Positions 7,238-59,928 of a DNA stretch of 64,000 bases are shown here, in pieces. Within the stretch, counting starts at the first letter, position 1. Each line of letters opens with the position of its first letter. Where the stretch lies: contig LODT01000034.1 of the NCBI GenBank assembly GCA_001606155.1, forward strand, positions 659,665-723,664, read 5' to 3'. The notes below the pieces were generated by a model. That model did not search any database. It was not told the origin of the DNA and saw only the letters and a list, made by a program, of their open reading frames with translations. The position numbers and the translations under genes are program-made. This DNA is from Tieghemostelium lacteum (taxonomy: Eukaryota > Evosea > Eumycetozoa > Dictyosteliales > Raperosteliaceae).

Positions 7238-7350
7238 GTTGCAGGCTTAAAATGATTTTTCTGCAGAAAAATTATTAAAAATTACTAAGAAATCGAGATT
7301 TTTTTCATCAGTTTTTCCAAGGACTTGAGATTTTCAAAGATTTTAAGTTT

Positions 7351-10300: not shown

Positions 10301-11551
10301 TAACTTCGTATTGGTTTTAAAGTTTCCAGATGCTATCCAAGATGGGAAATTGAAAATTAGAGCTCTATTTATGGACCTATATGTCATCAAAATATTAATA
10401 TTGATATTTACTATGTATTGTGTCATAAATTCAAACACAAAGAGTCCCGATGGTCCCTGTGAAAGAATAGATGATTGTGCTTGTGAGACATATTCAAAAA
10501 TTTCACTGTTGGATGATGTAACAGTCGTGAATAGACCATTACTTTGTCTTTTAGGTATTAGGTTATCGTAGAAGACAAATGAATAGTTTTTACTAGCGAT
10601 TGTTAGAATACTTTGATCTAAAACCATTTGGTATCTAGAAGGATTCCCATTCGCTATTAAATTCTCTTTTACATACAACACATCATTAATTTCCAAACCA
10701 AAGTAGGTTTCAGAGTTTCCTGAAACAAGTATATCTGATACATGGTAGAATTTACATGGATAGAATGCAGGTGATAGAGGATATGTTGGTTGTACTAGAG
10801 GTGATTCTACAGTGGCTGTTACATTCTTTATAAAACTTGGGAATGTATTATTATAAATTAAATTGTTTAAATTACTTGTTATAGTCATATCTATTAAAAC
10901 CATATCAGAATCTAGTGTTGGGGTTGTACTAGGGTAAAATGATACAAAATATTCACCCAATTTAGATTTCATACTTGATTGTAATGTTGGTCTATAATTT
11001 ACACTACCAACATTGATATTACTCAAAGGATATTTTATATCAAATTTAAATTTAGCATAATATCCAATTTGATTACTATAATACACTCTGGTAACATTTT
11101 GAAGTGTTACCAAATTAGGTTGATCTTCGCAAGTGTAGCTTTTATAAAATGTCCAGTTAGTATCCTCAGATGTAACTGTATCTTTTATAATCCAAGTTGG
11201 GGTAGAAGTTCCTAATGGAACTCTAACTAAAATACTAAGTATTTGCATTGAACCATTTAAAGATTTTGCCACTACTTGTGGACTTGAGGTGAAAGATGTG
11301 CTTGAAGCAATAAAAGGATTTCCTGCATAATTTATATATTCTATTAAATAATTTACTACACATCCATTCTCATCTGTTGAATATTTATCATTTAAGTAAA
11401 GTGGTGTTAAATCTGAATAACCATATAATGGTAAACTATCTATTTTACTTAAATTAATATTTTATTTTCAAATTGTATTTTTTTATTTCTTACATGTATG
11501 ATATAGATAAAATAAAATAAGTGTGAGGGAATACACCTTGCTCACAATCAT
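7351..11551 (-). CDS. ComC-like EGF/IPT membrane protein, array copy 2
   Basis: Exons 11551-11494, 11439-9517 and 9458-7351 give 1362 residues with the same phase-1 introns as its neighbours. Exon 1 encodes a signal peptide (MIVSKVYSLTLILFYLYHT). The ectodomain, IPT-like segment, EGF module (LCGGPNNGDCIANKCQC), C-terminal module and membrane helix are in the same order as in copy 1. Exon 3 is exactly the same length as in copy 1 (2108 bases). The acceptor of exon 3 is an AAG; a CAG six bases later would also keep frame and remove two residues. I prefer the first because the residues ADSMPP match copies 3 and 4. It is most likely a plasma-membrane protein. Confidence 0.85.
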
Positions 11552-11811
11552 ATTTGATTTTGATATAATCGGTTACCGATTTTTTTGAAAAGTTTTTTAA
11601 ATTTATTTTAGATATTTATAGAAAGTGTATAATCAGTGATTCTTTGATATTTATGATGGTTCTAATTATTAAAATAAATACTTTAGGTTATATTTGCTGA
11701 TCAGGTATCAATTTGAATAAATAAAATCAACTATTTAAAAGATTTTTATTATGATATTTCATTATTTTTGATTTTTTGGGAATGTAATTTAAATGTAAAT
11801 TTCTATCTATT

Positions 11812-14800
11812 TTATTTAGGTATTGGTTTGAGTTTGATCATTAATACTCTTACTGAAGAACTCTTTTTATATAAGAAATAACTTATCAGAATGATTGCAA
11901 TGATACCAATTGCAACACTTCCAATGATGATACCAATCAATTGGGTTTTGGTTAAACCTTTACCTTCAGTTGGTTGACCACATGTTGATGTTGATTGGTC
12001 ACTTGCTTTTTGTGAATCAATTAAAACTGAATAATCAGGATCCATAATAACAAGGTATTGAAAATTTGGAATGTTGATTGCAACTTGGTTTTGAATTTGG
12101 GTGGATTGTGATTCACCATTTTGGAAAGTGTTACTTATAGTTTGTATTCTGTTGTCAATAATAGCTCTTTTGATGAATCTTCCATAAAGAGAATGTTCAT
12201 TCACTTGAAGTTTTACATAGTCTGCATCTGAATCTGGTGAATTTCCTTGTTCTTGATAGGTACATGAATAATCATTGGTATCTGATTGAATGGATGATGC
12301 CATTATAAGTTGAAGAGTGTTTAATGAACTTTGGAACTTGAATGGAGAGATTGAAATTTGATATTTCAAAGTTGAAGGCAAAATATCAAAAGTTTCACCA
12401 GCAAACTCAACAGTATCTTTGTTGTGGAAATATTTCAGAGTGACTTTAACTGTGGTGTTTATTCCTCCATAAGGAACATCAGTTTCATAGAGATACTCTT
12501 TATTGTTGGTTGGTGTTGCCGATGTTACATTGGTATATTTCCAATTTGTGAAGTTATAAGAGAAATTAATTGAACCATCTTTGTTGATTTCGTTCAATGA
12601 TACAATTGAAACAAGAGTTTTGAGTGAAACATCTTTTCCATCCAAATCAGTTTTATAATCATTTCCAGTATCAGGGCTTGTTGTATTGATGATTGGTTTT
12701 ATGATAATATTTTGTGATAAACAATCATTTCCAATCCAAGGATCTTTGCATTGGCATTTATTTGCAATACAATCACCATTATTTGGACCACCACACAGGG
12801 GGGTTCCTAGACATTGAGTTGGAGGTGTAGATGGTATTATTATAGGTACAGGAGCTGGAGATATAACTATAAAGAATTGATTTGAACTACCCGTATTAAT
12901 ATAAAGTTCAATTTTATATTTACCTTTCAGTGTGAGGGATGGTACATTCTTGAATACTGCAAAAACATTATTTACAAATACACTAGGGAGTTTGTATACA
13001 TTGCCCACAGCTGGGTATATGGTAAGGGTGGCATTGGTATCACCAAAGTTTTTACCATAAACAGTTAAATCACCACCATCAGTTGTCAAAGTACTTGTAC
13101 TAGTAATGTATGGAACTAGAAGATTAGTATTGGTTACAACTATGTTAGAGTATCCAGAGATTTCAGTTATATCATTTGTACCAGTGCCTCCGAAGTTCAA
13201 TTGTAGGTCAGAATATCCATAAATTCCCATACCCAAAGTGGTAGTTAATGTCCACGGACCTCCATGCATATAAGGTAACTCGATTTTACATTTAAAACAT
13301 GCACTTTTTGAACCTACATTTACAAGAGTCGATCTGGTTACATAATGATCAAAAAACAGTCCAGTAACCATACAATAAGGCAAATGTCTTGTACTGATTT
13401 CAGAATCAGCATCTCTGATACAAAATGACATATTAAATGCTCTTTTTGTTGGTGAATTAACCAGAATGATATTTTCTTTGTTGATTGTCATATTTGATAG
13501 TACTGGTGCTATTGTATCCATTGATGGAGATACACAATTTAAATTTATACTAATAGGTGAAAACTTCATTAATGGTGATATACCTTGGTTTACAGAATTC
13601 AATTTGTACTCAGAAAATACACCATTATAATCCTCTAAATAAATGTATTTAATTTGGAAAATCTGTGTAATGCAAGTTTGGTTGATTCTAATTGGCATAT
13701 AATAAGGTTCTACCTTATTCTCATTTGTATAGGTAAAGTTATGCTCATACCCATCCAAATCAGATATAACTGATATTAAACCATATTTAAAACCATTATT
13801 ATCGTCAGATACCGTTATATCCCAACCAAATTCTATATCAGTGTTTATATTAATAACATCTGAAGGAAATGCTGCCAAACTTGTAAATATAGGTGGCATT
13901 GCATCAGCATCTTTGGTTTTATAAAATATTAGTATTTGTTTTTAATTCCAATGTTAGTTATTATTTTACATACTTTGAGAAAACACACGTAAAAGTGATG
14001 AAAATCCATGTGTTGTATATATATCTATACTTGTAAATTCGAGATCTGGATACCAGATAGAATATTCAACATTACCAGTGAATACATGGGATGGTATATC
14101 AAAATTAATGGAAAACATATTCATTTGTTGATTCCATCCACCATAGAATACATATTTATATGGATCAGTGTTTCTTACATTGATAAAGAAAGTAATGGCT
14201 ACACCAGATTGTCTGTTGGCATTGCTGATATTGAAATAGATTGCATTCTGAGCACCAATATTTGATAGATCAATATCATTTAATGCAAATCTTATTGAAG
14301 TAATTTGATAGATTTCATAGTTTTGCTCAATATTCGTTATAAATTCTGGTACAGTTGGAATTGGATTGAAATTGTAGAATCCATTAGTGTAAGTTTTCAA
14401 ATTACCAGCAAAATCATATAATGCTATATTGTCAATTGGTAGGTATGGCTTTTTTATATTTAAAAAATCGACATATTTTTGAAAGTTACCAACTATATAG
14501 GTACCATCTATAATATCAGTATAGTTCAAGTGTTGCACTTCTGTAGTACCAGAATACAAAACCATACGATAGAAACCGGATACATCGTCAGATATACTTG
14601 CTGTAATTAAAACCCTTAGCTTTCCAAATGACTTTAGTGAGAGATTGTTTAGTTGTGGTGGTAGAGTATCAGTTGAATCAGCATTATTAAGAGAATATAG
14701 ATTTTGGTTAATTGAAAATATAGAAGGTCCATTGAATCTTGGAATTGATGCAATAACATCCAAAAATGCATTTTTGTAATTTCCACTGTAAATACGAGTA

Positions 14801-16037
14801 AATGGGTTCAAGTAAAACTGATCACTGATATATGCATAGTTATAGAATAATGAATCTGGAGCTAAATTGAGATACTGAGTTGAAGAGAATGTAATTCTAA
14901 TTACAGCCACATTATTAAAATATTGTGAAGATGCAAGAGTAGATCCATACCCAAAAATCTGTATTGGTGGTGGAGTGGTTGTAATTGACTTTCCAATCAC
15001 TTGATTGGATTGATAATTTCGAATATAGGTGAATGCCAATTGGGTGTATGCGGCCTGAGTTTCTGTAAAGTCAAATACAAATCCATATTTATCAGGATTT
15101 CCACTAACCATTCTGTTTTCCATTGGCTCCACTTTCTGTTTATTCCAACAGTACATATACAGTCCATTAGGTTTTTCAACTGATCCTGCATAATAGTAGG
15201 AAAGGGGTGTTAAATAAGATGTTTTGTCATTTGGATACAAATCAGCATGAATAGAACCTGGTAAAACACTGATATTTCGAATAAAACCTGGAATTGCATA
15301 TTTATGTGTAACTGTCATGTTGGCCCCATCTTGTAACTGTACAATCACTGATGAAAAATCCAGAGCAGTATTACTAAATGCTGGAGTTGCCATCACAATA
15401 AATTCGCCCATTTTCATTGTGGTTTTAAAAATCTTGAAATTAAAGTTATTGGGTGCCAAAGATGTCAATAGATTAACCATTCTTTTACTGAAATTAAATT
15501 TGAATTTAGTGTAATATCCAACTTGATTACTATATAACCATTGTTGTGGTAAACTGCTTATCCAATCTACTGGTGGTGCCTCACATTTATATTCAAGTAA
15601 AGTGTATGGAGAATCTCCAGTATCAGTAGTGATCTTGAATCCAACCAATGTTGTTCCAATAGGTACTATATACTGTAATTTCAGTAATTGTCTATCATTA
15701 TTACCTGTACTTGAAACCACCTCGGGTGATTCAATAAAATACTGATCAGTTACTGTGAATGCAACACCATCATCACTAGAAATATCGGCATAAACTTCTA
15801 AGCTACATCCTGAAACTGTATCTGCATATTTATCATTTATATAAGGTGGTGTTCTATCTTTTATTACAAAATTTGAATCTATAAAAATATGGTAAATTTT
15901 TAATAAAAATTAATATCCCATTAAATTAAATTTAATGCAATTCACTTACCTGCAAATTTTACAAATAAAAATAATGATAACAATAAAAATTTAACATTTA
16001 ATGTGAAATTTACATTGAATAGCATCTTAAATTTCAT
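11812..16037 (-). CDS. ComC-like EGF/IPT membrane protein, array copy 3
   Basis: Exons 16037-15950, 15878-13974 and 13910-11812 give 1363 residues. Two in-frame ATGs open exon 1 (16037 and 16025); either leaves a good signal peptide ending LFLFVKFAG, and neither has the usual AAA before it. The N-terminal two-thirds is clearly diverged from copies 1 and 2. From the EGF module onward (bases below about 12,805) it is almost the same as those copies, including synonymous sites. The membrane helix near the C-terminus and the tail ending KLKPIPK follow the family plan. It shares the block around NDIDLSNIGAQNAIYFNIS with copy 2. Confidence 0.85.
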
Positions 16038-16166
16038 TAGAAATATGATATTGAAAAATAAAATTTTATTGATTACAAAATCAGATCATCGTTTTTTTTT
16101 GGAACCAGTGGTTTCAGTCCAACCGAAAAAAAAAAATCTTAGGGTATCTCCTGGTTGAAAATAAAT

Positions 16167-19100
16167 TTATGACATTACATTAGCAATGTTGTTCTTGAAC
16201 TTGTGTGTCATAACTCGAACTGCTGAACTCTTTTTATGTGCAAAATAGGTAATAATGATGAGAGATATAACACCAAATGCTACACAACCAATTATGATAC
16301 CAATCAATTGAGTTTGGGTAAGGGTTGATGAATTTTCAGCTCTTTGATAGTCACATACTGCATTATACTTGTTAGATGCAGGTTTAGAGTCTACTAAAAC
16401 TGAAAAATCAGGATCTAATGTAACTGAATACTTATAATTTGGAATATTTATACCAATTTGGTTTTGGACTTGGTTGGATTGTGATTGGTTGTTTAGAATG
16501 GTATTGGTTATGGTAAGGATTCTGTTGTCTACTATAGCTCTTTTGATAAATCTTCCATAGAGAGAATGTTCGTTTACTTGAAGTTTGACATATTGATTAT
16601 TGTCAAGATTGTCTTCAATGTAGGAGCATGAATTGTCAGTGGTGTTAGATTGCATAGATGATGCCATAACCAATTGAAGGGTGTTCAATGAGCTTTGGAA
16701 TTTGTAGGGTGAGATGGTGACTTGGTATTTCAAAGTCGATGGTAACATATCCAAATATTCATTGGCAAAATAAATTGTGTCTTGGGTAAGGTAGAATTTT
16801 AATAGTACTTTTACAGATGTGTTTAGGTTACCTTGTACAATGGATGTTTCATACAGGTACTCTTGATAATTAGTTGATGTATTGGTTGATGTTGTATTGG
16901 TGTATCTCCAAGTTGTGAGATTGTGTGATGTATATATTGAACCATCTCTATTCAGCTCATTGAGTGATATAACAGATATCAAGGTTTTTAATGATATTTG
17001 GTTTCCGTCTAATTCAGTTTTATAATCATTTCCAGTATCAGGACTTGTTGTATTGATTTCTGGTGATATAATGATATTCTGCGATAAACAATCGGTACCT
17101 GTCCAAGGATCTTTACATTTACACTTGTTATTATTACATTCACCATTGTTAGGGCCACCACACAGAGGTGATCCTGAACATTGAGTGGGTTGGGTGGTAG
17201 GTTGTGGAATATATGGTTCGGTAGACTCTACTATTTGTCCTTGATATGCATTAGAATCTACACCATTGAATGAAAGAGTTAAGGTGAATCCTGTTGGAGA
17301 GGTACCTGGTAGATAGTTGATAATTGCCATTGTTCGTGCAGTGTAACTTAATGGCATTGACATTTGTATTCCAGTGGCTGTTATCAGCCTAAATGTAGCT
17401 CCGGATAGATCACCAAAGTTTCTTCCAAAAATTGTCAATGAACCACCATATGAGTAATATTTACTTGTTGATTCAATGTAAGGTGGAGGATGGTCAGCAA
17501 GTTGAATCACAATATCTTGATATCCATTTAATGATCTAGTATCAACTGCTCTGGATCCTCCAAAGTTTTGTACACGATCTGCATAACCGTATATAGCAAG
17601 ACCTAGTGAAGTTGTGTAAGGCCAAGGTCCTGCAAACATATAAGGTAACTGAACATGGCATACCCAACATACCACATCCTGAGTTGGTGAGGTAGTGGAT
17701 ATAACAGATTGTACAGTATAATGGTCAGTGTATAACCCTGTAATAAGACAATATGGTAGATGTCTTAGATTGATCAGTGATGTATCCTGTGCACAAATAG
17801 TGATATCAAATTTACTTTCAAGAGGTGAGTTTACATTAATTACTGCTGGTTTGTTGGTGTAGGATATATTGGTGAGTACTGGTGGTAATAAATCAACAGG
17901 TGATGAAACGCATGATATTGTTAATTTAGTTTCAGTGGAATCTTGGAAAATCATTAAAGGACTGATTCCACTAGTTGCTTCGTTGATGGTGTATTCTGAA
18001 TATGCACCATTCAAATCTTCCAAATATATATAATTAAATGTGAATACCTCAGGTTTACATGGATTCTTAACATTCCATGTAACCAATACATTATAAGGAC
18101 TAACATAACCATCATTATTATCATTAACAATTGTGAAATTATTAGCATAACCATCTATTGAACTAATAACCGATACCATTCCTGATTTAAAGCCACTACT
18201 AATTGTAATATTAAAACCAATATCAATTTCACCCAATACGCTTTGAGTGTTACCTGGAATTGTCCATAAACCGACAAATACAGGTGGCATTAAATCTGCA
18301 TCTATTTAAATAATACCAAATTTATATTAGTGTATAATAATTCATGGGTATAAAGATAGGGTGTACATACTTTCGGATATAACTCTTAATTGTGATGAAG
18401 GTCCTAAAGATATTAGTAAATCTATACTTGAATAAGAGAGATCAGGGTACCATATAGAGTATTCAACATTTCCTGTGAACATTCTTGGAGGAAGTTCAAA
18501 ATTAATGGCAAACATATTGATTTGGTTATTCCATTTACCATAGAATACATATCTGTTGGGGTCAGTGTTTTTTACATTGATAAAGAATTTAATGGCAACA
18601 CCAGATTCTTTGTTGGCATCAGAGATATTGAAATAGATTGCATTCTGAGCACCAGTAATTGATAGATCAATATCATTTAATGCAAATCTAATTGATGTGA
18701 TTTCATGTAAAAGGTAGTTATCTTCAGTATTTTGAATATAATGTTCAATTACTGGAATTGCATTGAAATCGTAAAAACCATTTTGGTAGACCTTTAAATT
18801 GCCAGCTAAATCATAGACCTGAATGATATCAATAGCTTTGAATGGGTGATTGATATCTAGGAAATCTTCGTATCTTTCATAGTACCCATTTACACTATCT
18901 CCATCAACAAGATCTCTATAATCAACAGTACATATAAGTTCATTATTGGAGAACATTTTCATTATATAGAAACCAGATAGATTGTCTTGAATGTTTGCCC
19001 ATATTAATACCTTATTAGGACCAACTTTTATAAATTCCAAATTGTATAGTGTAGGTACAACTGTATCAGTACTACCTCCAATAGTCTGTGTATAAGTGTT

Positions 19101-20400
19101 ACCCATTAGATTGTAGGATAGCATGGTATTATAGTTTGGTATTGTTACAGGAACTGATGCTTGACATAACTTAAAGTCACCTCCGAGTTGACCCATAGGA
19201 CTTGGCATGTAGAGACTCAGTGTCAATGCTCGGTATGTAAATGTCAGCAAAGGCATTAAAACCAAATTTTGCATATTAAATAAATGCTCATATAATGTCA
19301 GTGTAAGGAATGAATTGGAAACAACAGAGGCTGAGGTTGCTACAAATGGACTAGTAACAGAAGACACTGTATTAAATGAACGGGGATTTCTAAACATACT
19401 AGTACTGTTAGCTATAAAGGTGAAAGCATATTCAACATTACCAGATGGACTACTAATAGGTACATCATACAAATATCTAAAATTACTAGGATTTCCACCA
19501 ACAATTCTATTTTCGATAGGTTGGAATACTTGATTTATAGATAAACCCATTAGGACACCCTGTTGAGTTGGTTGAACATTGCCAAAGTAGTATAAGGTCA
19601 GAGGTGTAATCATATTGTTTGTTAATGGATACACCGTAGAAGGACTTACAAATAAATCAATAGAGGTATCTAGTACAAATCCTCCTAGTGTAATGAAATG
19701 GGTATTGGTAGAAATGAAACTATTGGCAAAAGGTACTGATACTGTAGTGAAATTAGTTACTGAAAGTGCAATCTTTGGACTTGCAGTTACAATATATTCT
19801 CCAACCTTCATTTTCATTGGTAATATTTGAATATTGTATATATTAGCTATTGGAGCCAAAGCTATATTCCCCAATTTTTTGATGAAATTCAATTTTAATT
19901 TAGTGTAGTATCCATACTGGTTACTGTAGTACCAGTGGGGTGATACAGCTTGATTAATCCAAACAACAGGTGGTGATTCACATGTATAATTGTGTAATGT
20001 TAAATTATCTGATCTTGACAAATTAAATGCAACCATTGATAAGGTAGTAGCAGTGTCAACTGGAATTTGGAAAACCAGTTTAAATAAAAGTTTAAAACCT
20101 GTGGTATCGGTTGCTAAAAGAACAGGTGGAACTGAAAACTGATCACCTCCCAATTCAAATGTATTATTATCCAAATTTGTTATTTCTACTATATAATTCA
20201 AAACGCAACCTGTTGACGTCTCAGCATATTTGTTATTATTATAGGGATTTGGAGTTTTATCAACCACAAGAAATCTATCGCATTCTATAAAAACCTAGTA
20301 AGTACTTTATCATGATTACAAAAAAAATTAACAAAAACCTACTAATAATTGAAATGAAGATAATTATACATAGTAATCGTAAATTAGATATTATCCCCAT
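16167..20400 (-). CDS. ComC-like EGF/IPT membrane protein, array copy 4 (most diverged)
   Basis: Exons 20400-20343, 20284-18371 and 18301-16167 give 1368 residues. Signal peptide (MGIISNLRLLCIIIFISIIS), ectodomain, IPT-like segment (GGSLTIFGRNFG), EGF module (LCGGPNNGECNNNKCKC), C-terminal module and membrane helix all follow the array plan. Unlike copies 1-3, its C-terminal module has not been homogenised: it differs at many residues and at the nucleotide level. It therefore probably shows what the family looks like without recent conversion. Its 5' end faces the plus-strand gene that starts at 20723. Confidence 0.85.
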
Positions 20401-20722: not shown

Positions 20723-23700
20723 ATGAAAAATTATTCATTGTTTACCTTTTTTTTTATTTTTTTTATTTTATTTGGAAATTTAAATGGTCAATGTCCACTA
20801 CCTTACCAGGTTACAAATAGAGGTTGTTTATTAGGAGGCACCTCAGATGTAATAGAAACTGTTCGTGTAAGTAGCTGAAATTTCATTAAATAATTTTAAT
20901 AATTTGGTATCAAAATTATTAATTGTAATAAATTAGTGTGTAAATGGAAATAATTTTTATAATGAATTTACATCTGTAGTTGGAGGTAATCCCTGCACCA
21001 ATGGATATACCAGAGATAATACTTATTCTTTTGGATATACAATACCTCCTAATAGATATTTCCAAATGACCGTTTGTCAAACTCTTGTACCTAGTATGAG
21101 ATATGCAGTGCCTCTATTTATAAATGGAGAAATTTGCACTGAAAATGGCGGTGATGATTATTTATTTGATTTTAATAGTGCACAGTATAGAAGTAAAAGA
21201 TATCTGACCATGGAAACTTGTATTGATGGATATATTATGTTTGATGGTAGTGAGACTTCAACCACAGCAACTCAATGTGGACCTAGTGGAGGTAGTTTAC
21301 ACATGGCTTCTTATGATATGGGTCTTTTGTATACTTGTTCTGGAGTTTGTGCTAATGGAGGCACATGCAACCAACCAACTGGACAATGTCAATGTACCCC
21401 TGCTTGGACAGGTGCATTATGTCAAAATGATGCAGATGAATGTACATTAAATATTGATAATTGTGCACAAAATTGTATCAATACAAATGGTGGTTTCAAA
21501 TGTTCATGCAACACTGGATATACATTGAATGCTAATAAATTCTCTTGTGATGATATTAACGAATGTCTGCTTGATACTGATGGTTGTCAACACGGTTGTA
21601 TTAATAATGTACCAGGATTCACATGTACTTGTAACCCTGGTTACAGACTAAATACTCTAAATACCAAGACTTGCGATGACATTGATGAATGTTTAGAAAA
21701 TACTGATGGATGTGCACAAAACTGTACCAATTCTGTGGGATCATTTACATGTTCATGTGGTAATGGTTACACTTTGAATACGAATCAAAAGACTTGTGAT
21801 GATGTTGATGAATGTTTGTTAAATACCGATGGATGTCAACAAGGTTGTCTAAATATAGGTGGAGGGTTTACTTGCACTTGTAATACTGGTTTCTCTTTGA
21901 ATGCCGATAAAAAGACTTGTGGTGATATAAATGAATGTACTTTAAATACAGATGGCTGTGCCCAAAATTGTACCAATACTGTAGGTGGATTCCAATGTTC
22001 TTGTATGTCTGGTTATGTTTTGAATTCTAATGGAAAGTCTTGTGATAATGTAAATGAATGTGCAATGGATACTGATTTATGTACAACTTCAACAACTTGT
22101 GTTGATACTGTGGGTAGCTATAGATGTGATTGTGTCAATCCAACTTATGGACATTCATCTCCTTATGAATGTATCCCAGTTCCACAAGTTACATCAGTTA
22201 CACAAATTGCAAAACTAGATTTCCAAATTAGTGGTAGTAACTTTGGTACTACTGCATCTCTCCTTCAAATTAAAATTGGACAAGTTAATTGTCAATCTAT
22301 TTCTTTTGTCAACCCCACCACCTTAAAATGCTCCATTCCAATAGGTTCTGAGGCTTTTGGTGTTGTTTCAGTGAAATTATCTGGTGTTGAAGGTACTGGT
22401 AATTACATAGGAAGTCCATATATCGAATCATCTAGTAACAGAGTAGTCAACACTGATATCCTAGTTACTATAATGGGTAAGAGATTACCAAATACATTGG
22501 TTGGAACTAAAATGTTTATAGGTAGTCAAGAGTGTACACTTACCAGTGCAACCAACATAAGACACGAATGCACAATTGGTAGAGGTACTGGACATAAATT
22601 AGTTAAATTGACAAATGGTGCTTTTGAAAATACAGATAATCACCAATTTGCATACCCATTACCAGAGATTCATGATATCACTAATATCACAAGTGAAGGT
22701 GGTTCACTAACTGTTACTGGTCAACACATTGGCACTGACCCTTCAAAAATATCAATGCAAATTGGTACTATTAAATGCAATAATATTGAAATTCTAACCG
22801 GTCATGAAGAATTCAAATGTAATGTTGTCAGTGGAATTCAAGAGATTACACATTCAGTTGAACTTACTGTAGATGGTCAAACTACTGACAGCACAATTCC
22901 AGTTTATATAACTGTAAAACCACCAACCAACCCTAAACCACCTCAATGTGGTACTTCATGTCCAGTGAATGGTGTATGCACAAGTGATGGATGTAAATGC
23001 AAAGAAGGTTACACAGGTACCAATTGTGATAAAGTTCCTACACATGTAGATCCTAAACCAGATCCTGAAAAACCTGGTGTAGATGTTGGAACTGATCCTA
23101 AAGACAGATACAAAATTTCTATCGTTAGAGTACAGGAACTAAACTATCAAGATACACCAGTTGTTTCTATTGATCTTTTGAATTCTCAATGGAAACTTGC
23201 AAGTAACCAAAGTACCAATACATGGACTTATACAACTACATTATCAAACAATGCCAGTATATCAACAACTTTTGAATATATAACACAGGCAGATGGTAAA
23301 TCATTTAATTTCTCTGGAAGATCTATTCATTTGTCCAAGGATTCAATGAAACTCTCAATTGCCGTCAACAACTGGGACTTTGATAGTAGATTAAATAGAT
23401 TGGAATTTCATATTGAAAACAGTAGTCCTCAATTGATGACTGATAAATGTGATAATCCCGTTAACCAATCTTCAGTAAGCCAATCTACCAATCAGAATAC
23501 TATATTCACAGAACTTAAGAACCCATCAAATGGAATGTATGCTAGATTCATGTCCTATGCCGAGATTGATGGTCACGCAATCAATGGTAGAGTTAGAACT
23601 ATACCAAATGAAGATACCACCAAAACCAATACAGTTATTGTTGCTACCTCTGTCCCCTATTTCAAAACCAGTGCTGTTATAGATCCTGATTATTCAGTAT

Positions 23701-23912
23701 TTCTTAGAGTTGCATCAGATTCCTCTGAGGATGAAAACAATATTGAATGTTCGTCAAATTCTAAAAAAACCAATTGGAGATTAATTGTTGGTGTCACCGT
23801 AGGTGGTGTTGCAGGAATTGCTTTAATTGTAGGTGCAATATTACTTATCAAAAAGAAAATTGTAGTCCGAAATTTTATGAAAAAACTAAATAACAAAGTT
23901 AATAAAGCATAA
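20723..23912 (+). CDS. EGF-repeat/IPT transmembrane protein with ComC-type C-terminal domain
   Basis: Exons 20723-20866 and 20937-23912 (phase 0) encode 1039 residues. The order is: signal peptide ending NLNG; a Cys-containing N-terminal region; one EGF module at about 182-210; six calcium-binding EGF repeats (D-x-N/D-E-C pattern) at about 213-460; three IPT/TIG-like segments to about 700; another EGF at about 720 (CPVNGVCTSDGCKC); the same C-terminal module as the neighbouring array, with DPDYSVFL; a membrane helix at about 995-1020; and a basic tail. It is a likely cell-surface adhesion or signalling protein. The calcium-binding EGF run sets it apart from the four array genes. The TTG at 20684 in frame is not a plausible start. 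Confidence 0.88.
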
Positions 23913-47845: not shown

Positions 47846-50194
47846 TTATTTATTGCAAGTTGCCAAAGAGATGTGGTCATTCTTTTTGTGACATGATAAG
47901 ACCATTTCCATGATCATTTTGTTATATTGTACTGGTATATCCAATTTCTCACCTTCTTCTACAATGACACCATTGATGGAATCAATTTCAGTTTGCTGAC
48001 CACGAATGACATCTTGAAGCATTGAAGAGTAGTTTGCTTTAGTTCTCTCTGCTATTTGTGCTACATATTTAAAACCTTCTTCAGAATCCTCTCCATAGGG
48101 TAATCGGATTCCCTTAGCCTTACATACATCCATACCCTCCACAATGATCTTTTTCATCATTTGTTTTGAATACTCATTCTGAACTAGATATCCATTAGGA
48201 ACACCCAAAACTGCAGAAAGTGGGTTAATAGCTGCATTTACAACTACTTTACCCCAAACTAAACTGTCGACATCATAAGATAGCTGTGTAAGTATTCCGG
48301 CTTGATTGAGAATCTCAGAGAGTGCTTCTAAAGCCTGATGCTCTTCTTTAGACTTTGGTTGCAACATTTCAGAATTTACACCCAATTTCAAATTGGGAGA
48401 TGCCAAATAGGTCAGTCCATGACCAGTATGCTTTACATGACCTGGACTGACAACCTGTGCACCATTACTTGTTACACCTTGCCAAACTACATTTTTGTAA
48501 CCTTTCTCTTGTATACAAGATTCCAAAGACTCTCTATTTCCAATACCATTTTGTAGTGTCAAGACTACAGCATTAGGATTACCACTAATCATCTTGGCAG
48601 CTGTTAGAGCAGCTTGTTTTGTTGAGTTACTCTTTACCAAAACCAATGCCAAATCTGGATAACTACCATCTTTAATAACATCCAATGAATCCAAAGTTGC
48701 TTTTATAGATCTAATTTCTTGAGTCTCACCGCCAATATTATGTAAAATCAAACCTTTCTTATTTATATGATCAACATGTTCTTTCCAACCGGATACCATC
48801 CACAAATCAGCTAGATTATTCTGAGCTAATTTTGCACTAAAAAAACTACCCATTGCTCCAGCACCTATTACTACAACCTTTGGTTTCTTCTTTTTATCTT
48901 CCAACACTTTAGAATTCATTTGTTTTTTTACATTTTCAATTATATTATTATTTAATTTGGTATTATTATCATCTAATGGTTTTGATACACTTTGTGTTGT
49001 ATTAGGTTCTTGTATTGATGTTGATACTGTTGATTTTTTACTCGTATTCTTTAATATTTCACTATTTTCATAAAGTAATTGTTGTTTTTCAATCTTTTTT
49101 TGGTTGTCTAGTGGGGTTAGATATTCATTTAATTCATTTTCTTTCATTGAAAAGGAATGAAGGGAATCTGGAAACGATCTGGAGGTTACTTCTTGTTTGA
49201 AGTTCGATAGTGCTTCTTGAATGTGTTTAGAAATATTAGCGTATTGTTTTACAAATTTAGGTAGGAAATCAGAGTACATTCCCAACATGTCATGGTAGAC
49301 TAGTACTTGACCACTAGTACCATTTCCAGCACCAATACCTATAGTAGGTATCTTTAGCATTCGTGTTAGGGAGGTTGCAACTGCATGTGGTACCATTTCA
49401 ATTACAATAGCAAAGCAACCGGCCTCTTGCAATGCTAGAGCGTCCTCTAGAATCTTGTTTGCCTCCTCTGCTGTTTTACCCTGTAATTTAAATCCACCAA
49501 ATGAAGATACACTCTGAGGTGTCAAACCTATGTGACCCATAACCGGTATACCAGCTTCGACAATTGCTTTAATCTTATCCTGATGTTTTTTACCACCCTC
49601 CAATTTAATTGCATCCACTTGAGTTTCTTTGACTAATCGAATGGCATTCTGAACTGCGTCCCTAGGTGATGCCTCAAAACTACCAAATGGCATATCACCA
49701 ACTACAAATGCCCTCTTATTGCCTTTAATCACAGCTTTGGAGTGGTGTATCACCTGATCCATTGTAACTGATGTCGTACTCTTCTCACCTAACATTACCA
49801 TACCCAAGCTATCACCTACAAGTATCATATCAATACCAGCACGATCAACCTCCTTCCCACTACAATAGTCATAAGCAGTGACCATTGTCAGTGGTTTTCC
49901 TTCCTGGTACTTCTTCTTTAGATCCAGAATGGTAACTTTCTTATCTTCGCTATTTACATGTGTAGAGTAGTAACTTTTCAAGCCGCTATAACTCAAATTA
50001 CTACCACTACTACTATTATTATTAATACTGTTATTTGATTTACTATTTATCAAATTGAAGTTACATTGTTGTTTTTTCTCTGTACATATGAATCGATAGA
50101 TATCAACAATATTTCTATTTAATTTTTCATTTTTATATATAAAATTTTTTAAAGTATTCGATCTTAATACTGTTTGTCTTAGACATTGTAACAT
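47846..50194 (-). CDS. panB-panE: Bifunctional ketopantoate hydroxymethyltransferase / ketopantoate reductase (PanB-PanE fusion)
   Basis: One uninterrupted exon of 782 residues joins two enzymes. Residues 85-350 are PanB: TMVTAYDYCSGKEVDRAG, the metal-binding VGDSLGM, KLEGG, MGHIGLTPQ and the active-site Glu in VIEMVP. An Asn/Lys-rich linker (about 355-430) follows. Residues 435-780 are PanE: the NADP site VVIGAGAMGSFFSAKL, the ketopantoate-reductase Lys in WGKVVVNAAINPLSAV, and SSMLQDVIRGQQTEID near the end. Together they would convert 2-oxoisovalerate to ketopantoate and then to pantoate, the first two steps of pantothenate synthesis. The first 40 residues are basic and hydroxylated with no acids before residue 23, a likely mitochondrial presequence. 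Confidence 0.93.
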   Translation of the reverse strand: MLQCLRQTVLRSNTLKNFIYKNEKLNRNIVDIYRFICTEKKQQCNFNLINSKSNNSINNNSSSGSNLSYSGLKSYYSTHVNSEDKKVTILDLKKKYQEGKPLTMVTAYDYCSGKEVDRAGIDMILVGDSLGMVMLGEKSTTSVTMDQVIHHSKAVIKGNKRAFVVGDMPFGSFEASPRDAVQNAIRLVKETQVDAIKLEGGKKHQDKIKAIVEAGIPVMGHIGLTPQSVSSFGGFKLQGKTAEEANKILEDALALQEAGCFAIVIEMVPHAVATSLTRMLKIPTIGIGAGNGTSGQVLVYHDMLGMYSDFLPKFVKQYANISKHIQEALSNFKQEVTSRSFPDSLHSFSMKENELNEYLTPLDNQKKIEKQQLLYENSEILKNTSKKSTVSTSIQEPNTTQSVSKPLDDNNTKLNNNIIENVKKQMNSKVLEDKKKKPKVVVIGAGAMGSFFSAKLAQNNLADLWMVSGWKEHVDHINKKGLILHNIGGETQEIRSIKATLDSLDVIKDGSYPDLALVLVKSNSTKQAALTAAKMISGNPNAVVLTLQNGIGNRESLESCIQEKGYKNVVWQGVTSNGAQVVSPGHVKHTGHGLTYLASPNLKLGVNSEMLQPKSKEEHQALEALSEILNQAGILTQLSYDVDSLVWGKVVVNAAINPLSAVLGVPNGYLVQNEYSKQMMKKIIVEGMDVCKAKGIRLPYGEDSEEGFKYVAQIAERTKANYSSMLQDVIRGQQTEIDSINGVIVEEGEKLDIPVQYNKMIMEMVLSCHKKNDHISLATCNK

Positions 50195-50621
50195 GTTATT
50201 TAAATTAAAATAAAAAAAAAAAAAATAAAATAAAAAAAAGATGTATATGTATATTATCTGTTTGCGATATTATCTGTACAAAAAATAATTAATTTTTTCA
50301 GTGTGAGTTTCGTTAGATTTTTTGAGAATAATCTGTTTCTTTTGACGTTTTGATTACTAATTTATTTGTTTGATTAAAAAAATTTAAATTTTATATTGAT
50401 TTTATAAACATTTTAAATTGAGGAAAAGGGATAAAATTTGTAACGAAGTTGGGAAATAAAAAAAAAATAAAAAACCAATTTCCATCTTTGGAAACACAAT
50501 TCGACATTTAATTAAAAAATTTTTTATTTTCGCAATATAAAACTTTTTATGAAGATCAAACTAATCAATAACAACACCTTAAGGGTGTTATATATAACTT
50601 AAAGATGAAAATAACAAGAAT
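50195..50621. other. Intergenic region between the fusion enzyme and the ankyrin gene
   Basis: This 427-base region is the promoter side of the PanB-PanE gene and the 3' flank of the ankyrin gene. It is AT-rich, with long A-runs next to the PanB-PanE start. It contains one small hairpin, listed separately. Nothing else stands out. Confidence 0.55.
50573..50589 (-). other. Small hairpin in the 3' flank of the ankyrin gene
   Basis: AACACC-TTAAG-GGTGTT forms a six-pair stem with CCTTAAGG at its centre, 33 bases beyond the ankyrin stop codon. It could be a 3'-UTR element or chance; no function is assigned. Confidence 0.35.
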
Positions 50622-52703: not shown

Positions 52704-52790
52704 TCCATTTAAAATTTAAAGATTCAAAAAAAAATGAATAAAATCTAGTTATAGAATATTTAAATTTAATAAATTAATATAATTTTTTAT

Positions 52791-52990
52791 TGATTATCAA
52801 CAATCAATCAACTAACTCATTTCAAAATTCATTTGTTTTATTATATATAGAAACTTAAACAAATGGATTCATATTGTTTTTTGTTTTTATAAATTTTATT
52901 TTTAGGGTATGAATGTATTGAAAAGAATTAAAAGGATATATAATTAAGGAATTAAAAATTAACTAAAAATAGAAAAAAAGTTTCAACCTT
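52791..52990 (+). pseudogene. Degraded 3'-end relic of a Tgr-like gene
   Basis: About 33 bases starting at 52791 match, with few differences, the stretch encoding IINNQSTNS in the Tgr-like gene at 57118-57150 (core ATCAACAATCAATCAACTAA). Further on, a stretch like AACTTAAACAAATGGATTCA aligns to the membrane-helix start, and CTAAAAATAGAA plus TTTCAAC match the 3' flanks of both the intact gene and the other relic. The coding frame is lost. This places a further, older copy of the family just downstream in the same orientation, before the small ORF at 53053. Confidence 0.55.
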
Positions 52991-53052
52991 AGACATCAAT
53001 CTAAATTTTAGAAAATACTTGATATTTTAATATTTTATTTTCTTCAACAAAT

Positions 53053-53826: not shown

Positions 53827-54944
53827 ATTGATTGGAAATAATTTTGATGATTCTCTTCAATCAATTCACAAAACCAATATTTCATTCAATTGTCAGACAT
53901 TGGTCTGTTTAGGTAACTTGTCTTAGTATAGGACAATAGACAAAACTAGTAACATTTCCATATATAGTAATATTAAGAGATCTAGGGTCTCTAATAAACA
54001 TATATAATAAACATTAAACCATTATGGTTCAGTAGGGTCTATAGTACGTTAAAGATACATATAACACTTTAGAACTTAATATAACTATCCTTAATATAAC
54101 TTAAGTCTTACATTCAATGGGAGATCTATTTCACTTTCAAATCTGAATAATTATAATAATAATTCTAAAAAAACTGATTTTATCATTATCAGAAATATTT
54201 CAAATGAAATTGATGAATGGAGGAATTCAAGTTCATACTCCTTTCAATAAATCATCAAATTCAATTGAAATCAAATTCAAACCTTCAATTCAAGAAATCA
54301 AAGGAAATATCAACAAAAATGGAGGTGAAATCACAATCATTGGAAGATATCTCAATTTCAAAAGATTCAATGAACAACCAACATCAATGAGAATTGTTAA
54401 TCATCTCAATTCAACAATTTGTAATAATATCAAACAAATTGATAATAATAATATATTAATATGTAATCATTCACCAACCAAATCAATAAATCAAAATCAA
54501 TTAAAGATTATAATTGATGATCAACAATCAAACAATGATATCAATGTTCAATTTCAACCTCCTATCATTCATTCAGTTGTTTCACAATCAGAATCAACTC
54601 TCATCATAATTGGTGAGAATTTTGGAGAAGATCAATCATTGATTCAAATCAAACTTGATGAATCATTTTTAAAATTGAATCAATTCACAATCAATGAAAT
54701 TTCATTTGAATATCTTCAAATTGAACTCTTCTATAATAATTTTTAAAATATTCAAACAATTTCATTAATTATCAATAATCAATCAACAAATTCATTTCAA
54801 AATTTAAATTTTCAATCAAGTATTGAAGAAAACGTAAATCTTTCAAATGGAATCATCATTGCAATTGTTCTTTGTTGTTGTTTATTTACAATAGTTTTCA
54901 TTTTTGGATTATTAATGTATTTAAAGAAAATTAAAAAGAAATAA
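53827..54944 (+). pseudogene. 5'-truncated Tgr-like pseudogene split by an insertion
   Basis: From 53827 the sequence follows the third exon of the intact Tgr-like gene at 56396 onward (ATTGGAAATAATTTTGATGA), is interrupted by a 222-base insertion at 53891, and resumes at about 54113. It then encodes IPT-type segments almost the same as the intact copies (GGEITIIGRYLNFKRFNEQP; IIIGENFGEDQSLIQIKL). An extra A in the run near 54157-54163 shifts the frame, and a TAA at 54744 replaces a Ser codon; past it the old frame runs on through the membrane helix to a stop at 54942-54944. The first two exons and the signal peptide are absent. The short-tail ending shows it derives from the 55086-type gene. 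Confidence 0.8.
53891..54112. mobile_element. LTR-like insertion (possible solo LTR), about 222 bp
   Basis: The insert is defined by comparison with intact paralogues, which lack it. It begins TGTCAG and ends TTACA, the usual TG...CA ends of an LTR, and is flanked by a short direct repeat (TTCAAT). No internal coding region is present, so it would be a solo LTR of unknown family. Because C and A next to the repeat also match, the duplication could be read as 8 bp (CATTCAAT), which would suit a small hAT-type element instead; clear terminal inverted repeats were not found. It is younger than the duplication that made the host pseudogene. Confidence 0.55.
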
Positions 54945-55085
54945 AATTCCTTAATTTAAAATAAACTAAAAATAGAACAGTGCTTTCAACATTTGGTTAA
55001 TCTTCTAAAATTAGATGTTTTATTGTCATTTTACAAAAAATAAAAGTTAAAAGTTTTTATTATTAAGTGTTTTCAGATTAAAAAA

Positions 55086-57297
55086 ATGAAGAACATTTAT
55101 TTATGTTTTTTTATAACTTTGATATCAATTTGTAAATGTCAAATATATGATATAGACCCAGGTGATAACACTAAAAATACATTTAGTTTTGAAATTTTGT
55201 ATAATAATAATAATATTGATATTATAGAAATTAAAACAGATAAAAGTAACCAAAGTTATACACCAACTTGCAATATTCTAAGCACAAGTTTAAATTTATG
55301 TTCAATTCAACTAAATAATTATTCACAAACAGAGCAATACACCTTCATAGATACTTTAAATCCAATTCCATTCAAAATTTTAGGTATATTAAATAATAAA
55401 TATGATTTATCAATAGTTTCAATCCCAAAAACATCCAACACTTCAATTCTAAAGTTTTCAGGATTATATTTTCAACCATATGGTTCAATTTTTTATTTAA
55501 ATATAACAACAAAGAATTTAAATAATACAAAAACTTTTTTAAGCTCAAAAAATGAAATAGTTTTCTATCCTTTAAACCCAAACATTTTTGAAATTGATAT
55601 TGGGAATTCTGTTGGTGAGATTGAATTCTGGATTCAACAGGGAATTTACAATTCAGGAAGAATTGTTACACAATATCAGAGTAAGTATTATTAAAATATG
55701 GTTATATAATATGTTTTACATATAATTAATCGATTATATGAAATAGATCCTACAATAGAATCTACTTCTTTTGATAACAATAGATTCACAATTAATGGTG
55801 ATAATTTCGGAAATTCACAGTTTTCAAGTTATTCATTGGTTAAAATCAATTCAATTGTTCATGATTCATCTTCATTCTTGGATTATCTTGATAATAGAAT
55901 CATTGTAAATCCATTAATCAACACAAACTATTCTAAATCAATTCAATTTGATTTATCAATTGCAAATATTTCAACTTTAACACCTTTCAATTTTGATTTA
56001 AGTATGTTAGAATATTTTTCAACTTTTAAATTTATTCTAATTCTTTAAATTTAACAATTAAGGACCTTCAATCAATTCAATCAGTGTTTTGAATTCATAT
56101 TTAGGAGGTGAAGTTACAATTTTAGGATTTCGATTGAATTGTAAAAGAGATGATAATTCAACTTCAAATATTGAAATATCAATTGGAAATAAACCATGTT
56201 CAATGCCTGAGAATTTAATTGAAAAAGAATTCACATCAATTAAATGTTTATTACCTTCTGGATCTGAGAATGATGAAAATCTTTCAATCAATATCACAAT
56301 TGATTCAATTCAAAATGATCAATCTCAAATCAAATTCAGTTATCACCTTCCAACAATCTCAAATTATCAACATCAAATCGAAAATGATTCATTGATATTG
56401 ATTGGAAATAATTTTGATGATTCTCTTCAATCAATTCACAAAACAAATATTTCATTCAATGGGAATTCAATTTCACTTTCAAATCTAAATAATGATATTA
56501 AAAATTCTAAAAAACTGATTTTATCATTATCAGAAATATTTCAAATGAAATTGATGAATGGAGGAATTCAAGTTCATACTCCTTTCAATAAATCATCAAA
56601 TTCAATTGAAATCAAATTCAAACCTTCAATTCAAGAAATCAAAGGAAATATCAACAAGAATGGAGGTGAAATCACAATTATTGGAAGATATCTCAATCTC
56701 AAAAGATTCAATGAACAATCAACATCAATGAGAATTGTTAATCATCTCAATTCAACAATTTGTAACAATATCAAACAAATTGATAACAACAACAATAATA
56801 ATAATATGATAACATGTAATCATTCACCAACCAAATCATTAAATCAAAATCAATTAATGATAATAATTGATGATCAACAATCAAACAATGATATCAATGT
56901 TCAATTTCAACCTCCAATAATTCATTCAGTTGTTTCACAATCAGAATCAACTCTCATCATAATTGGTGAGAATTTTGGAGAAGATCAATCATTGATTCAA
57001 ATCAAACTTGATGAATCATTATTGAAATCGAATCAATTCACAATCAATGAAATTTCATTTGAATATCTTCAAATTGAACTCATCGATTATAATTTTTCAA
57101 ATATTCAAACAATTTCATTAATTATCAACAATCAATCAACTAATTCAATTTATAATTCATTATTTCAATCAAAAAGTGAAGAAAACGTAAATCTTTCAAA
57201 TGGAATCATCATTGCAATTGTTCTTTGTTGTTGTTTATTCACAATAGTTTTAATTTTTGGAACATTATTTTATTTTATGAGAAATAAAAAGAAATAA
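55086..57297 (+). CDS. Tgr-like IPT/TIG adhesion protein, short-tail form
   Basis: Exons 55086-55680, 55747-56001 and 56063-57297, all phase-1 joins, give 694 residues. Signal peptide (MKNIYLCFFITLISICKCQ), an N-terminal domain in exon 1, then IPT/TIG-like segments (GGEVTILGFRLNC; SLILIGNNFDDS; GGEITIIGRYLN; TLIIIGENFGEDQ), one membrane helix (GIIIAIVLCCCLFTIVLIFG) and a cytoplasmic tail of only about ten residues (ending MRNKKK). This is the plan of dictyostelid Tgr (TgrB/TgrC) proteins, single-pass surface proteins used in cell adhesion and kin recognition. The very short tail recalls TgrC1. The family match is by domain order and motif; one-to-one orthology is not claimed. Confidence 0.8.
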
Positions 57298-57406
57298 AAT
57301 TTCTTAATTTAAAATAAACTAAAAATAGAACAAAGCTTCAACAATTTTTTTGTACATTAATCTTTTTACAAAAAAAATTTTTTTTTAATTCATTTGATTA
57401 TTCAAC

Positions 57407-59928
57407 ATGTTGATCAAACTTATATTAGTAGTTATATTTTTTTCATTTTCATATTGCCAAATTACTGATATAAATTATTATCCTAACTCTTATACATCAT
57501 TAGAATTTCAAATAAATTTTAATAATGATATAAATATCAATGAAATTAAAACAGATAAAAGTAATCAAAGTTATATACCAACTTGTAACAACTATAATCC
57601 AAAAACATGCACAATTCAACTCAATTTTAAATCACAATCAGAAGAATATACATTTATTGATTCTTTAAACCCAAATTCATTTAAAGTAGTTTATTTATCT
57701 AATAAATATAATTTAACAGTAATTTCAATTCCAACAACAATTAATTCTTCAATCCTAAAATTTTCAGGATTATATTTCCAAACATATAAAAATTACATTT
57801 TAAAAATTACAACAACAAATTTAAACACAACAAAAACATTTCTCAGTTCAGAAGGTCAAATAACTTTCAACCCAGAAAACCCAACAATTTTCGAAATAGA
57901 TATAGGTAATTCAGTGGGTGAAATTGAATACAGAATAGAACAAAATATATATAACTCTGGTGTATTAAAAACAAATTATATGAGTAAGCTAAAATATATT
58001 AATTTTTTTAAATTGTAGAATATATTTTTCTTACATTATTCTTAAAATCTAAGAACCTACAATAGAATCAGTTTCATTTGATAACAATAGATTCACCATT
58101 ATTGGTGATAGTTTCGGAAATTCACAGTTTTCAAGTTATTCATTGGTAAAAATCAATTCAATTGTTCATGATTCATCTTCATTCTCTGATTATCTTGATA
58201 ATAGAATCATTGTAAATCCATTAATCAACACAAACTATTCAAAATCAATTCAATTTGATTTATCAATTGCAAATGTTACAACTTTAACTCCTTTCAATTT
58301 TGATTTAAGTATGTTTGAATAACATTTTTTACCTTATATATTTATTCTAATTCTTTAAATTTAACAAATCAGGACCATCAATCAATTCAATCAGTGTTTT
58401 GAATTCATATTCAGGAGGTGAAATTACAATTTCAGGATTTCGATTGAATTGTAAAAGAGATGATAATTCAACTTCAAATGTTGAAATATCAATTGGAAAT
58501 AAACCATGTTCAATGCCTGAGAATTTAATTGAAAATGAATTCACATCAATTAAATGTTTATTACCTTCTGGATCTGAGAATGATGAAAATCTTTCAATCA
58601 ATATCACAATTGATTCAATTCAAAATGATCAATCTCAAATCAAATTCAGTTATCATCTTCCAACAATATCAAATTATCAACATCAAATCGAAAATGATTC
58701 ATTGATATTGATTGGAAATAATTTTGATGATTCTCTTCAATCAATTCACAAAACAAATATTTCATTCAATGGAAAATCAATTTCACTCTCAACTTTGAAT
58801 AATGACAATAATAATTCTAAAAAACTGATTTTATCATTATCAGAGATATTTCAAATGAAATTGATGAATGGAGGAATTCAAGTTCATACTCCTTTCAATA
58901 AATCATCAAATTCAATTGAAATCAAATTCAAACCTTCAATTCAAGAAATCAAAGGAAATATCAACAAAAATGGAGGTGAAATCACAATCATTGGAAGATA
59001 TCTCAATTTCAAAAGATTCAATGAACAACCAACATCAATGAGAATTGTTAATCACCTCAATTCAACAATTTGTAACAATATCAATCAAATTGATAACAAT
59101 AATAATAATAATAATAATATATTAACATGTAATCATTCACCAACCAAGTCATTGAATCAAAATCAATTAATGATAATAATCGACGATCAACAATCAAACA
59201 ATGATATCAATGTTCAATTTCAACCTCCAATAATTCATTCAGTTGTTTCACAATCAGAATCAACACTCATCATAATTGGTGAGAATTTTGGAGAAGATCA
59301 ATCATTGATTCAAATCAAACTTGATGAATCATTATTGGAATCAAAACAATACACCATTAATAATATGTCATTTGAATACCTTCAAATTGAAGTAGAAAAT
59401 CTCTCTGGAGATGCCCAAACCATGACTCTTATAATTAATAATCAAACAAGTAATTCTAAACCAATTACTATGGGTAATGATGATACTAAAAAAGGTAGCT
59501 CTATTGGTATGATAATTGGTATTGTACTTGGTGCTGTTTGTCTTGGTACCATTATTTCTGTAGCCATTGTATTTAAAAAAAGAGAAGACCAAAGATTAAA
59601 AAATGAACTTAATAGTGAAAATGAAATGGAAATTAAATTAGATGTAGAAAAGGTATTACCCCAAAAGAAACCTGAAACTATAGTTGAGAAATCAATTGTA
59701 ATTAATAAAGATCCACAGAGAACTGAAACCAAAACTGATATTCTTGAACACCCAGATGAAGAAAATGAAGTATCAAAATCCCAAGTAGCAATTTGTAAAG
59801 GTATGGAGGGTAACAAAATCACAGGCAATATTCAACTAGATAATCAACCATCTCTTACTGGTCTCAACCCAGTTGTTACCGGTAAATACAGTGACTCTTG
59901 TATGAATGAAAATCCAATTAAGAAATAA
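57407..59928 (+). CDS. Tgr-like IPT/TIG adhesion protein, long-tail form
   Basis: Exons 57407-57983, 58054-58308 and 58373-59928 give 795 residues, with the same exon phases as the upstream paralogue. Exon 1 (signal peptide MLIKLILVVIFFSFSYCQ plus N-terminal domain) is diverged; exon 2 and most of exon 3 are almost identical to the paralogue up to about base 59,345. After that the sequence differs completely: another juxtamembrane segment, a different membrane helix (SIGMIIGIVLGAVCLGTIIS) and a hydrophilic tail of about 118 residues rich in Lys, Glu and Asn. The long tail could bind signalling partners, as the receptor TgrB1 is thought to do. The start codon follows CAAC. Confidence 0.82.

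What the first reader, a model, noticed from the sequence alone, without database searches (positions are those of the whole stretch)
55086..59928. Two Tgr-like genes with shared ectodomain but different N-terminal exon and tail
The two genes are almost identical across exon 2 and most of exon 3 but differ in exon 1 and entirely in the membrane helix and tail (about 10 versus about 118 residues). In D. discoideum the neighbouring tgrB1/tgrC1 pair acts as receptor (longer tail) and ligand (short tail) in kin recognition. A tandem pair with a common ectodomain core, a variable outer domain and asymmetric tails could be an independently arranged recognition locus.
Basis: partly seen in the sequence, partly recalled or inferred. 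Interest (0 to 1): 0.7.

Follow-up and report, generated by a model that had tools for sequence, protein, structure and literature searches.

The report
Tandem amoeba receptors sharing one core
A social amoeba carries two neighbouring cell-surface genes whose middle parts are kept almost identical by DNA exchange while their outer tips and inner tails differ, and much the same design recurs at other places in its genome, which hints at a home-made recognition system with a tailed and an almost tail-less partner.

Summary
Two intact three-exon genes, A (55086-57297; 694 aa, 5-residue tail) and B (57407-59928; 795 aa, 117-residue tail), carry IPT/TIG domains and lie head to tail, 109 nt apart. 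dS is 0.12-0.13 in exon 2 and the exon 3 core but 0.88 in exon 1 and 1.34 in stalk plus membrane helix: the core was homogenised by recombination. Decayed copies lie upstream.

The design recurs: six of eight further related loci in this genome show a diverged exon 1, a near-identical core and a changed end. In six of six multi-copy arrays with a long-tailed gene (83-117 aa) that gene is last. At loci C14a and C21 informative sites switch from locus grouping (core) to tail-class grouping (membrane helix). A MEF2-type site lies within 200 nt of the start codon in 14 of 20 family genes, against 2 of 39 control ORFs.

Best reading (function inferred): a dictyostelid counterpart of paired receptors, a signalling long-tail gene with a short-tail partner of matched ectodomain, arranged unlike tgrB1/tgrC1. 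Main rival: a neutral array-end effect with decaying short-tail copies; short-tail copies are broken at two loci. No positive selection was seen in exon 1. TgrB/TgrC orthology was not testable.

The parts
55086..55680 (+). gene A exon 1: signal peptide and N-terminal domain without Pfam or PDB sequence match
55747..56001 (+). gene A exon 2, homogenised with gene B
56063..57297 (+). gene A exon 3: TIG core (homogenised), stalk, membrane helix, 5-residue tail
57407..57983 (+). gene B exon 1: signal peptide and N-terminal domain
58054..58308 (+). gene B exon 2, homogenised with gene A
58373..59928 (+). gene B exon 3: TIG core (homogenised), stalk, membrane helix, 117-residue tail
54103..54993 (+). 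decayed third copy (3' half of exon 3, short-tail type, one in-frame TAA)
53827..53890 (+). 64-nt fragment of the core, 98% identical to A and B
52785..53039 (+). remnant of a short-tail 3' end and intergenic stretch, about 67% identical to A's end
54966..54975 (+). MEF2-type site CTAWWWWTAG, 120 nt before A's start codon
55005..55014 (+). second MEF2-type site, 81 nt before A's start codon
57319..57328 (+). MEF2-type site, 88 nt before B's start codon

Best explanation
A and B are two members of a Tgr-like (signal peptide, unknown N-terminal domain, IPT/TIG repeats, one membrane helix) family arranged as small head-to-tail arrays. Shown: within each array recombination (gene conversion or unequal crossing-over) homogenises exon 2, intron 2 and most of exon 3, while exon 1 and the membrane/tail end stay different; the long-tailed gene stands last; older copies upstream decay. 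Inferred: the long-tailed gene is the signalling receptor, and the short-tailed gene displays nearly the same TIG core with little or no signal of its own, as ligand on neighbouring cells or as non-signalling competitor, so the pair works like a paired receptor or like the TgrC1 (ligand) / TgrB1 (receptor) division of labour. Repeated copying of the core keeps the two ectodomains matched when either one changes; the N-terminal domain gives each copy its own outer face. A shared MEF2-type promoter site suggests that both are switched on together in development.
For: dS by segment in four intact within-locus pairs: exon 1 0.26-0.88, exon 3 core 0.03-0.12, stalk+helix 0.91-1.79. Same profile by nucleotide identity at six loci: first half of exon 1 0.67-0.89, exon 2 0.92-0.98, first 900 nt of exon 3 0.87-1.00, then a drop to 0.46-0.60 in the bin from 1200 nt. 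Six-gene array C21b: exon 1/intron part 0.63-0.89, core 0.87-0.99 in six pairs looked at. Quartet C14a/C21: 36 by-locus to 2 by-class sites in the core stretch, then 1 to 32 at the helix. Core tree groups by locus in six of six loci with two or more copies in it; in the C-terminal tree the short-tail ends of C14a and C21 form one clade (99/99) without the long-tail ends. Long tails C14aL/C21L dN 0.22, dS 0.60, so constrained. MEF2-type site in 14 of 20 family genes, 2 of 39 control ORFs. Two other tandem TIG arrays of this genome lack the divergent end.
Against: No expression, binding or knockout data. Short-tail copies look broken at C14a and C21, C42 has a long-tail gene with no short-tail neighbour found, and C14b has only tails of about 30 residues, so a pair is not kept everywhere. 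A single ancient short-tail class is not shown: in the C-terminal tree C30 and C31 ends group by locus and C29B is unplaced. Exon 1 trees also pair by locus. No sign of positive selection. The quartet is undecided upstream of the core stretch: exon 1 8 by class, 8 by locus. Long tails share no clear motif beyond C14aL/C21L.
Confidence: 0.5

Rival explanations
1. Array-end effect without paired function. Unequal crossing-over inside the near-identical core multiplies the inner repeat unit; only the last copy can keep the unique downstream end, so it alone bears the long tail. The long-tail gene is the working one and short-tail copies are transient by-products on the way to decay.
For: The long-tail gene is last in six of six multi-copy arrays that hold one; upstream copies are often fragments or frameshifted; C31x combines an exon 1 second half close to the long-tail gene (0.92) with a short-tail-type end, as a crossover would give; C40 and C42 manage without an intact short-tail copy.
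Against: Short-tail genes are intact at C29, C30 and C31 with the same exon phases; dN/dS between A and B is well below 1 in exon 1 (0.33) and core (0.17); short tails of C14a and C21 stay alike; the promoter element is kept before short-tail genes.
Confidence: 0.33
2. Donor-cassette diversification: decayed and short-tail copies serve mainly as templates from which pieces are copied into the long-tail gene to make new recognition variants, as Holland et al. speculate for the tgrBC locus.
For: Decayed copies beside intact genes at C29, C30, C14a, C31 and C40; the decayed window copy shares 10 informative core sites with B and 13 with A, then 92 of 103 with A (permutation p 0.0005); speculation in PMC12324515 (text parts read).
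Against: What is exchanged is the conserved core; the variable exon 1 is the part not homogenised in most pairs. No programmed donor features were looked for or seen.
Confidence: 0.09
3. Direct orthologues of tgrB1 and tgrC1 in a changed order.
For: TIG receptors, neighbouring genes, long and short tail.
Against: Published tables list tgrB1 as limited to group 4 and tgrC1 to D. discoideum (PMC4931340 passages), and one-to-one tgrB/C orthologues as restricted to the discoideum clade (PMC12324515). A and B are each other's nearest relatives in core and exon 1. Orthology itself was not tested here.
Confidence: 0.03

Closest known systems
TgrB1/TgrC1 allorecognition pair of Dictyostelium discoideum
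   Same: Neighbouring genes for TIG-domain membrane proteins; unstable locus with duplicate and broken copies and recombination within genes; receptor and ligand roles; one has a signalling intracellular domain (PMC12324515 parts read; PMC11088635 passages).
   Different: There the genes are divergent and share a 523-bp promoter (PMC5288501 passage) and the two proteins belong to separate branches (PMC12324515). Here they are head to tail, the core is near identical, and the design is repeated at several loci.
Mammalian paired receptors (CEACAM1/ITAM-type CEACAMs, Siglec-5/14, CD300A/C)
   Same: Very similar ectodomains kept alike by gene conversion or recombination, with different cytoplasmic parts (PMC2832619 passages; PMC12447643 abstract start in the listing).
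   Different: Different domain type and kingdom; opposite signalling motifs are known there and none was recognised here; in CEACAMs the ligand-binding N domain is homogenised, here the N-terminal domain is the part left out.
Hydractinia Alr and clustered protocadherins (recalled; listings only)
   Same: Recognition by surface proteins with related ectodomains in gene clusters.
   Different: No tandem short-tail/long-tail order with homogenised core was seen in what I read of them (listings only).

Membership tests
[quoted passage not shown]
   PF01833 above cut-off in A (41.1 bits) and B (35.5 bits), cut-off 20.9
Tgr family | type I membrane protein: signal peptide and one membrane helix | tested here: met
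   hydropathy only: C-terminal helix in 12 of 12 models; N-terminal hydrophobic stretch above threshold in 10 of 12, A and C30S falling short of it although their N-termini look like leaders
TgrB/TgrC branch | places inside that branch in a tree | not testable with these tools
   no D. discoideum Tgr sequences are held; the published tables argue against orthology
tgrB1/tgrC1-type locus | divergent pair sharing one promoter | tested here: not met
   A and B are head to tail, 109 nt apart
tgrB1/tgrC1-type locus | high polymorphism among isolates and heterophilic binding | not testable with these tools
   one genome only
tgrB1/tgrC1-type locus | unequal intracellular parts in the two partners (recalled for TgrC1; the papers seen describe TgrB1's intracellular domain) | tested here: met
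   5 versus 117 residues
paired receptors | ectodomains kept alike by recombination while tails differ | tested here: met
   true for the core, not for exon 1
paired receptors | opposing signals through recognisable motifs | tested here: inconclusive
   no shared motif found in seven long tails by alignment and blastp except between C14aL and C21L

The most novel reading that the evidence does not exclude
A modular self-recognition system in which gene conversion itself keeps ligand and receptor matched: the almost tail-less gene shows the same TIG core as the long-tailed receptor, binding is between like cores, and any change in one spreads to the other by copying. This would solve, in one step, how a two-gene recognition system can change specificity without passing through a mismatched state; the array design would have been used at several loci of one genome, under common MEF2-type control.
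Probability: 0.2. Interest if true: 0.87.

Novelty: new variant of a known kind. Interest (0 to 1): 0.62.

Why it matters
How a two-protein recognition pair gains a new matched specificity is stated as an open problem for tgrB1/tgrC1 (PMC12324515, text read). Arrays that keep a common core by recombination, while tip and tail differ, offer a concrete and testable answer, and bring paired-receptor logic, known from vertebrate immunity, into a social amoeba. If the neutral rival is right, the arrays are still a clear natural example of how crossover inside a shared core fixes one tail at the array's end.

Tried and rejected
Structure prediction of the exon 1 domain (two window sequences) and of A's exon 3 (three window sequences) gave mean pLDDT 44 and 33; not used, no fold search made. 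The exon 1 model is mostly strands, which at that confidence says little. Sequence searches of exon 1: no PDB match up to E 10 with a 12-sequence profile; no convincing Pfam match in 12 members up to E 1. PDB search with B's exon 2-3 part gave only two weak plexin hits, E 0.1 and 0.67.

Diversifying selection on exon 1: looked for by NG86 pairs and 40-codon windows, not found; site models were not run. A common ancient short-tail class across all loci: not supported. Tyrosine or other motif common to the long tails: not found. Shared promoters by overall similarity: above shuffles at C30, C14a and C31, not at C29 or C14b. A paper with tgrB1 and gene conversion (PMC8129030, passages) describes TgrB1/TgrC1 without gene conversion. 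Searches for print on this; no listed title dealt with such arrays, but the lists were capped and subscription journals are mostly not held.

Gene models were made by a script that joins GT-AG introns and keeps the best alignment to A or B; they are not backed by transcripts. The first models of C40 (intron 1) and C14aS were wrong and were redone or treated as frameshifted. C14aS frameshifts could be sequencing errors.

Full report
WHAT IS THERE. The window lies in contig C29 of a 23.33-Mb genome of 43 contigs. Size fits the published 23.4-Mb genome of Dictyostelium (Tieghemostelium) lacteum, reported as 54 contigs (PMC4931340 passages); this identification is an inference and the contig counts differ. 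Both have exon 1 ending in phase 1, a 255-nt exon 2 and a long exon 3. Twelve intact family models in this genome share these phases, with exon 2 of 252-261 nt. Pfam sees TIG domains and little else.

HOMOGENISED CORE. Along A and B, dS is 0.88 in exon 1, 0.13 in exon 2, 0.12 in the exon 3 core, 0.13 in the next 52 codons and 1.34 in stalk plus helix. Intron 1 is 0.58 identical, intron 2 0.89. Synonymous and intron sites follow the same steps as amino acids, so constraint alone does not explain it: the middle has a more recent common ancestor than the flanks. This is recombination between the copies.

RECURRENCE. A search of the genome with A's exon 3 found 52 matches (candidates capped). I followed eight loci besides the window: C30, C31, C40, C42, C14a (388-394 kb), C14b (441-447 kb), C21a (192-197 kb; called C21 in most calls) and the more distant C21b (644-660 kb). 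Other TIG genes (C23, C4, C24, C17, C2) were not followed, apart from two control arrays. Identity profiles within six loci (C29, C30, C14a, C21a, C31, C14b) all show a near-identical core and a sharply different end. Exon 1 is clearly less alike at C29, C31, C14b and C21a, less so at C30 (0.89) and C14a (0.85 and 0.93 for its halves). C21b shows the exon 1/core step in the six of 15 pairs I profiled. So six of the eight further loci repeat the pattern; C40 has only fragments beside its gene and C42 is single.

LONG TAIL LAST. Tails after the helix: C29B 117, C30L 110, C42L 103, C31L 98, C40L 94, C21L 84, C14aL 83; C29A 5, C30S 6, C31S 13; C14b1 29, C14b2 30. In the six multi-copy arrays with a long tail (C29, C30, C14a, C21a, C31, C40) that gene is the last in the direction of transcription. 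In C21b the last of the five plus-strand genes has about 47 more residues than the others. C14b is the exception. Upstream copies are broken or partial at C29, C30, C14a, C21a, C31 and C40; intact short-tail genes stand at C29, C30 and C31.

TAIL CLASS VERSUS LOCUS. Loci C14a and C21a are close enough for a four-way test. In exon 3 from L032 8000 to 8713, 36 informative sites pair genes by locus, 2 by tail class, 1 crosswise; from 8744 on, 32 pair by class, 1 by locus, 2 crosswise (recount and Fisher p 1e-16; sites are linked, so p is nominal). Upstream, exon 1 is undecided (8 class, 8 locus, 3 cross), exon 2 and the first 420 nt of exon 3 have few sites. So at these two loci the tail classes are older than the locus duplication and the cores were homogenised afterwards within each locus. 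Trees agree: cores group by locus (C29 100/99; C30, C31, C14b 100/100; C21 97/90; C14a 94/89), the short-tail ends of C14a, its decayed copy and C21 group together (99/99), A's end groups with the decayed window copy (97/99). But C30 ends and C31 ends group by locus (92/89, 99/99) and C29B's end is unplaced, so an ancient split across all loci is not shown, and exon 1 also pairs by locus. The program flagged several long branches in the C-terminal tree.

MOSAICS. C31x has an exon 1 second half nearer to the long-tail gene (0.92 against 0.76) and an end nearer to the short-tail gene (0.89 against 0.69 in the bin from 1050 nt). The decayed window copy shares 10 informative sites with B and 13 with A before 57000, then 11 and 92 (permutation p 0.0005); part of that contrast is B's own divergent end.

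SELECTION. dN/dS in exon 1: 0.33, 0.40, 0.46, 0.34 for C29, C30, C31, C14b; in the core 0.17, 0.40, 0.13, 0.27. In C21b exon 1 averages 0.49 over 15 pairs, windows 0.31-0.74; core windows 0.16-0.54. No value exceeds 1. Long tails C14aL/C21L: dN 0.22, dS 0.60.

CONTROLS. Two other tandem TIG arrays of the same genome were compared (two of ten regions asked for were granted): the C24 pair keeps a 0.94 end (its N-terminal bin is lower, 0.78, and a mid bin 0.83), the C37 trio is evenly diverged. Neither has a changed tail.

PROMOTER ELEMENT. The strict MEF2 consensus CTA(A/T)4TAG occurs nine times in the window, expected 2.5, none of 100 shuffles reaching nine; four of the nine lie in the array. 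Within 200 nt of the start codon it is present in 14 of 20 family genes: C29A (twice), C29B, C30S, C30L, C14b2, C31L, C31S, C31x, C40L and five of six C21b genes; absent in C14aS, C14aL, C14b1, C21L, C42L and C21b g1. Control: 2 of 39 ORFs of 300 aa or more (first ATG taken as start, which may be wrong where introns exist; p 2.7e-7 ignores that paralogues are not independent). The genome has four MADS-box matches above cut-off. In D. discoideum mef2A mutants tgrF1 and tgrC5 change expression and tgrC5 has a consensus Mef2 site (PMC3640940 passages).

MECHANISM. Shown: architecture, homogenised core, array order, promoter element. Inferred: short-tail gene as ligand or competitor, long-tail gene as receptor, core matching by conversion as functional. 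TgrC1 is described as ligand and TgrB1 as receptor, with a nearly invariable intracellular domain (PMC11088635 passages), and binding is by mutual TIG domains (title in reference lists). The neutral rival, an array-end effect, explains order and decay just as simply and is held at 0.33.

VERDICT. Real, recurrent and, as far as the searches show, not described for this arrangement; a new variant of a known kind.

Noticed in passing
54966-54975, 55005-55014, 57319-57328 and upstream of 11 other family genes: MEF2-type site CTAWWWWTAG near the start codon in 14 of 20 family genes against 2 of 39 control ORFs; a shared developmental switch may be testable.
   Followed up: partly
3029-20294 (minus strand): Tandem array of four alternating ORF pairs of about 704-712 and 647-656 aa; of the first pair one has DUF7035, DUF7034 and ComC_SSD domains and the other DUF7743. 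The other three pairs were not scanned.
   Followed up: partly
20937-23912 (plus strand): 991-aa ORF with EGF repeats, three TIG stretches and a ComC supersandwich domain, a second TIG gene in the window.
   Followed up: no
47846-50269 (minus strand): One ORF joins ketopantoate hydroxymethyltransferase and ketopantoate reductase domains, a fused pantothenate enzyme.
   Followed up: no
L037 about 3700-4060 (C21b, 646.2-646.6 kb): The first two genes of the C21b array are divergent with a short gap between their first exons, the orientation known for tgrB1/tgrC1, though both have short tails.
   Followed up: no
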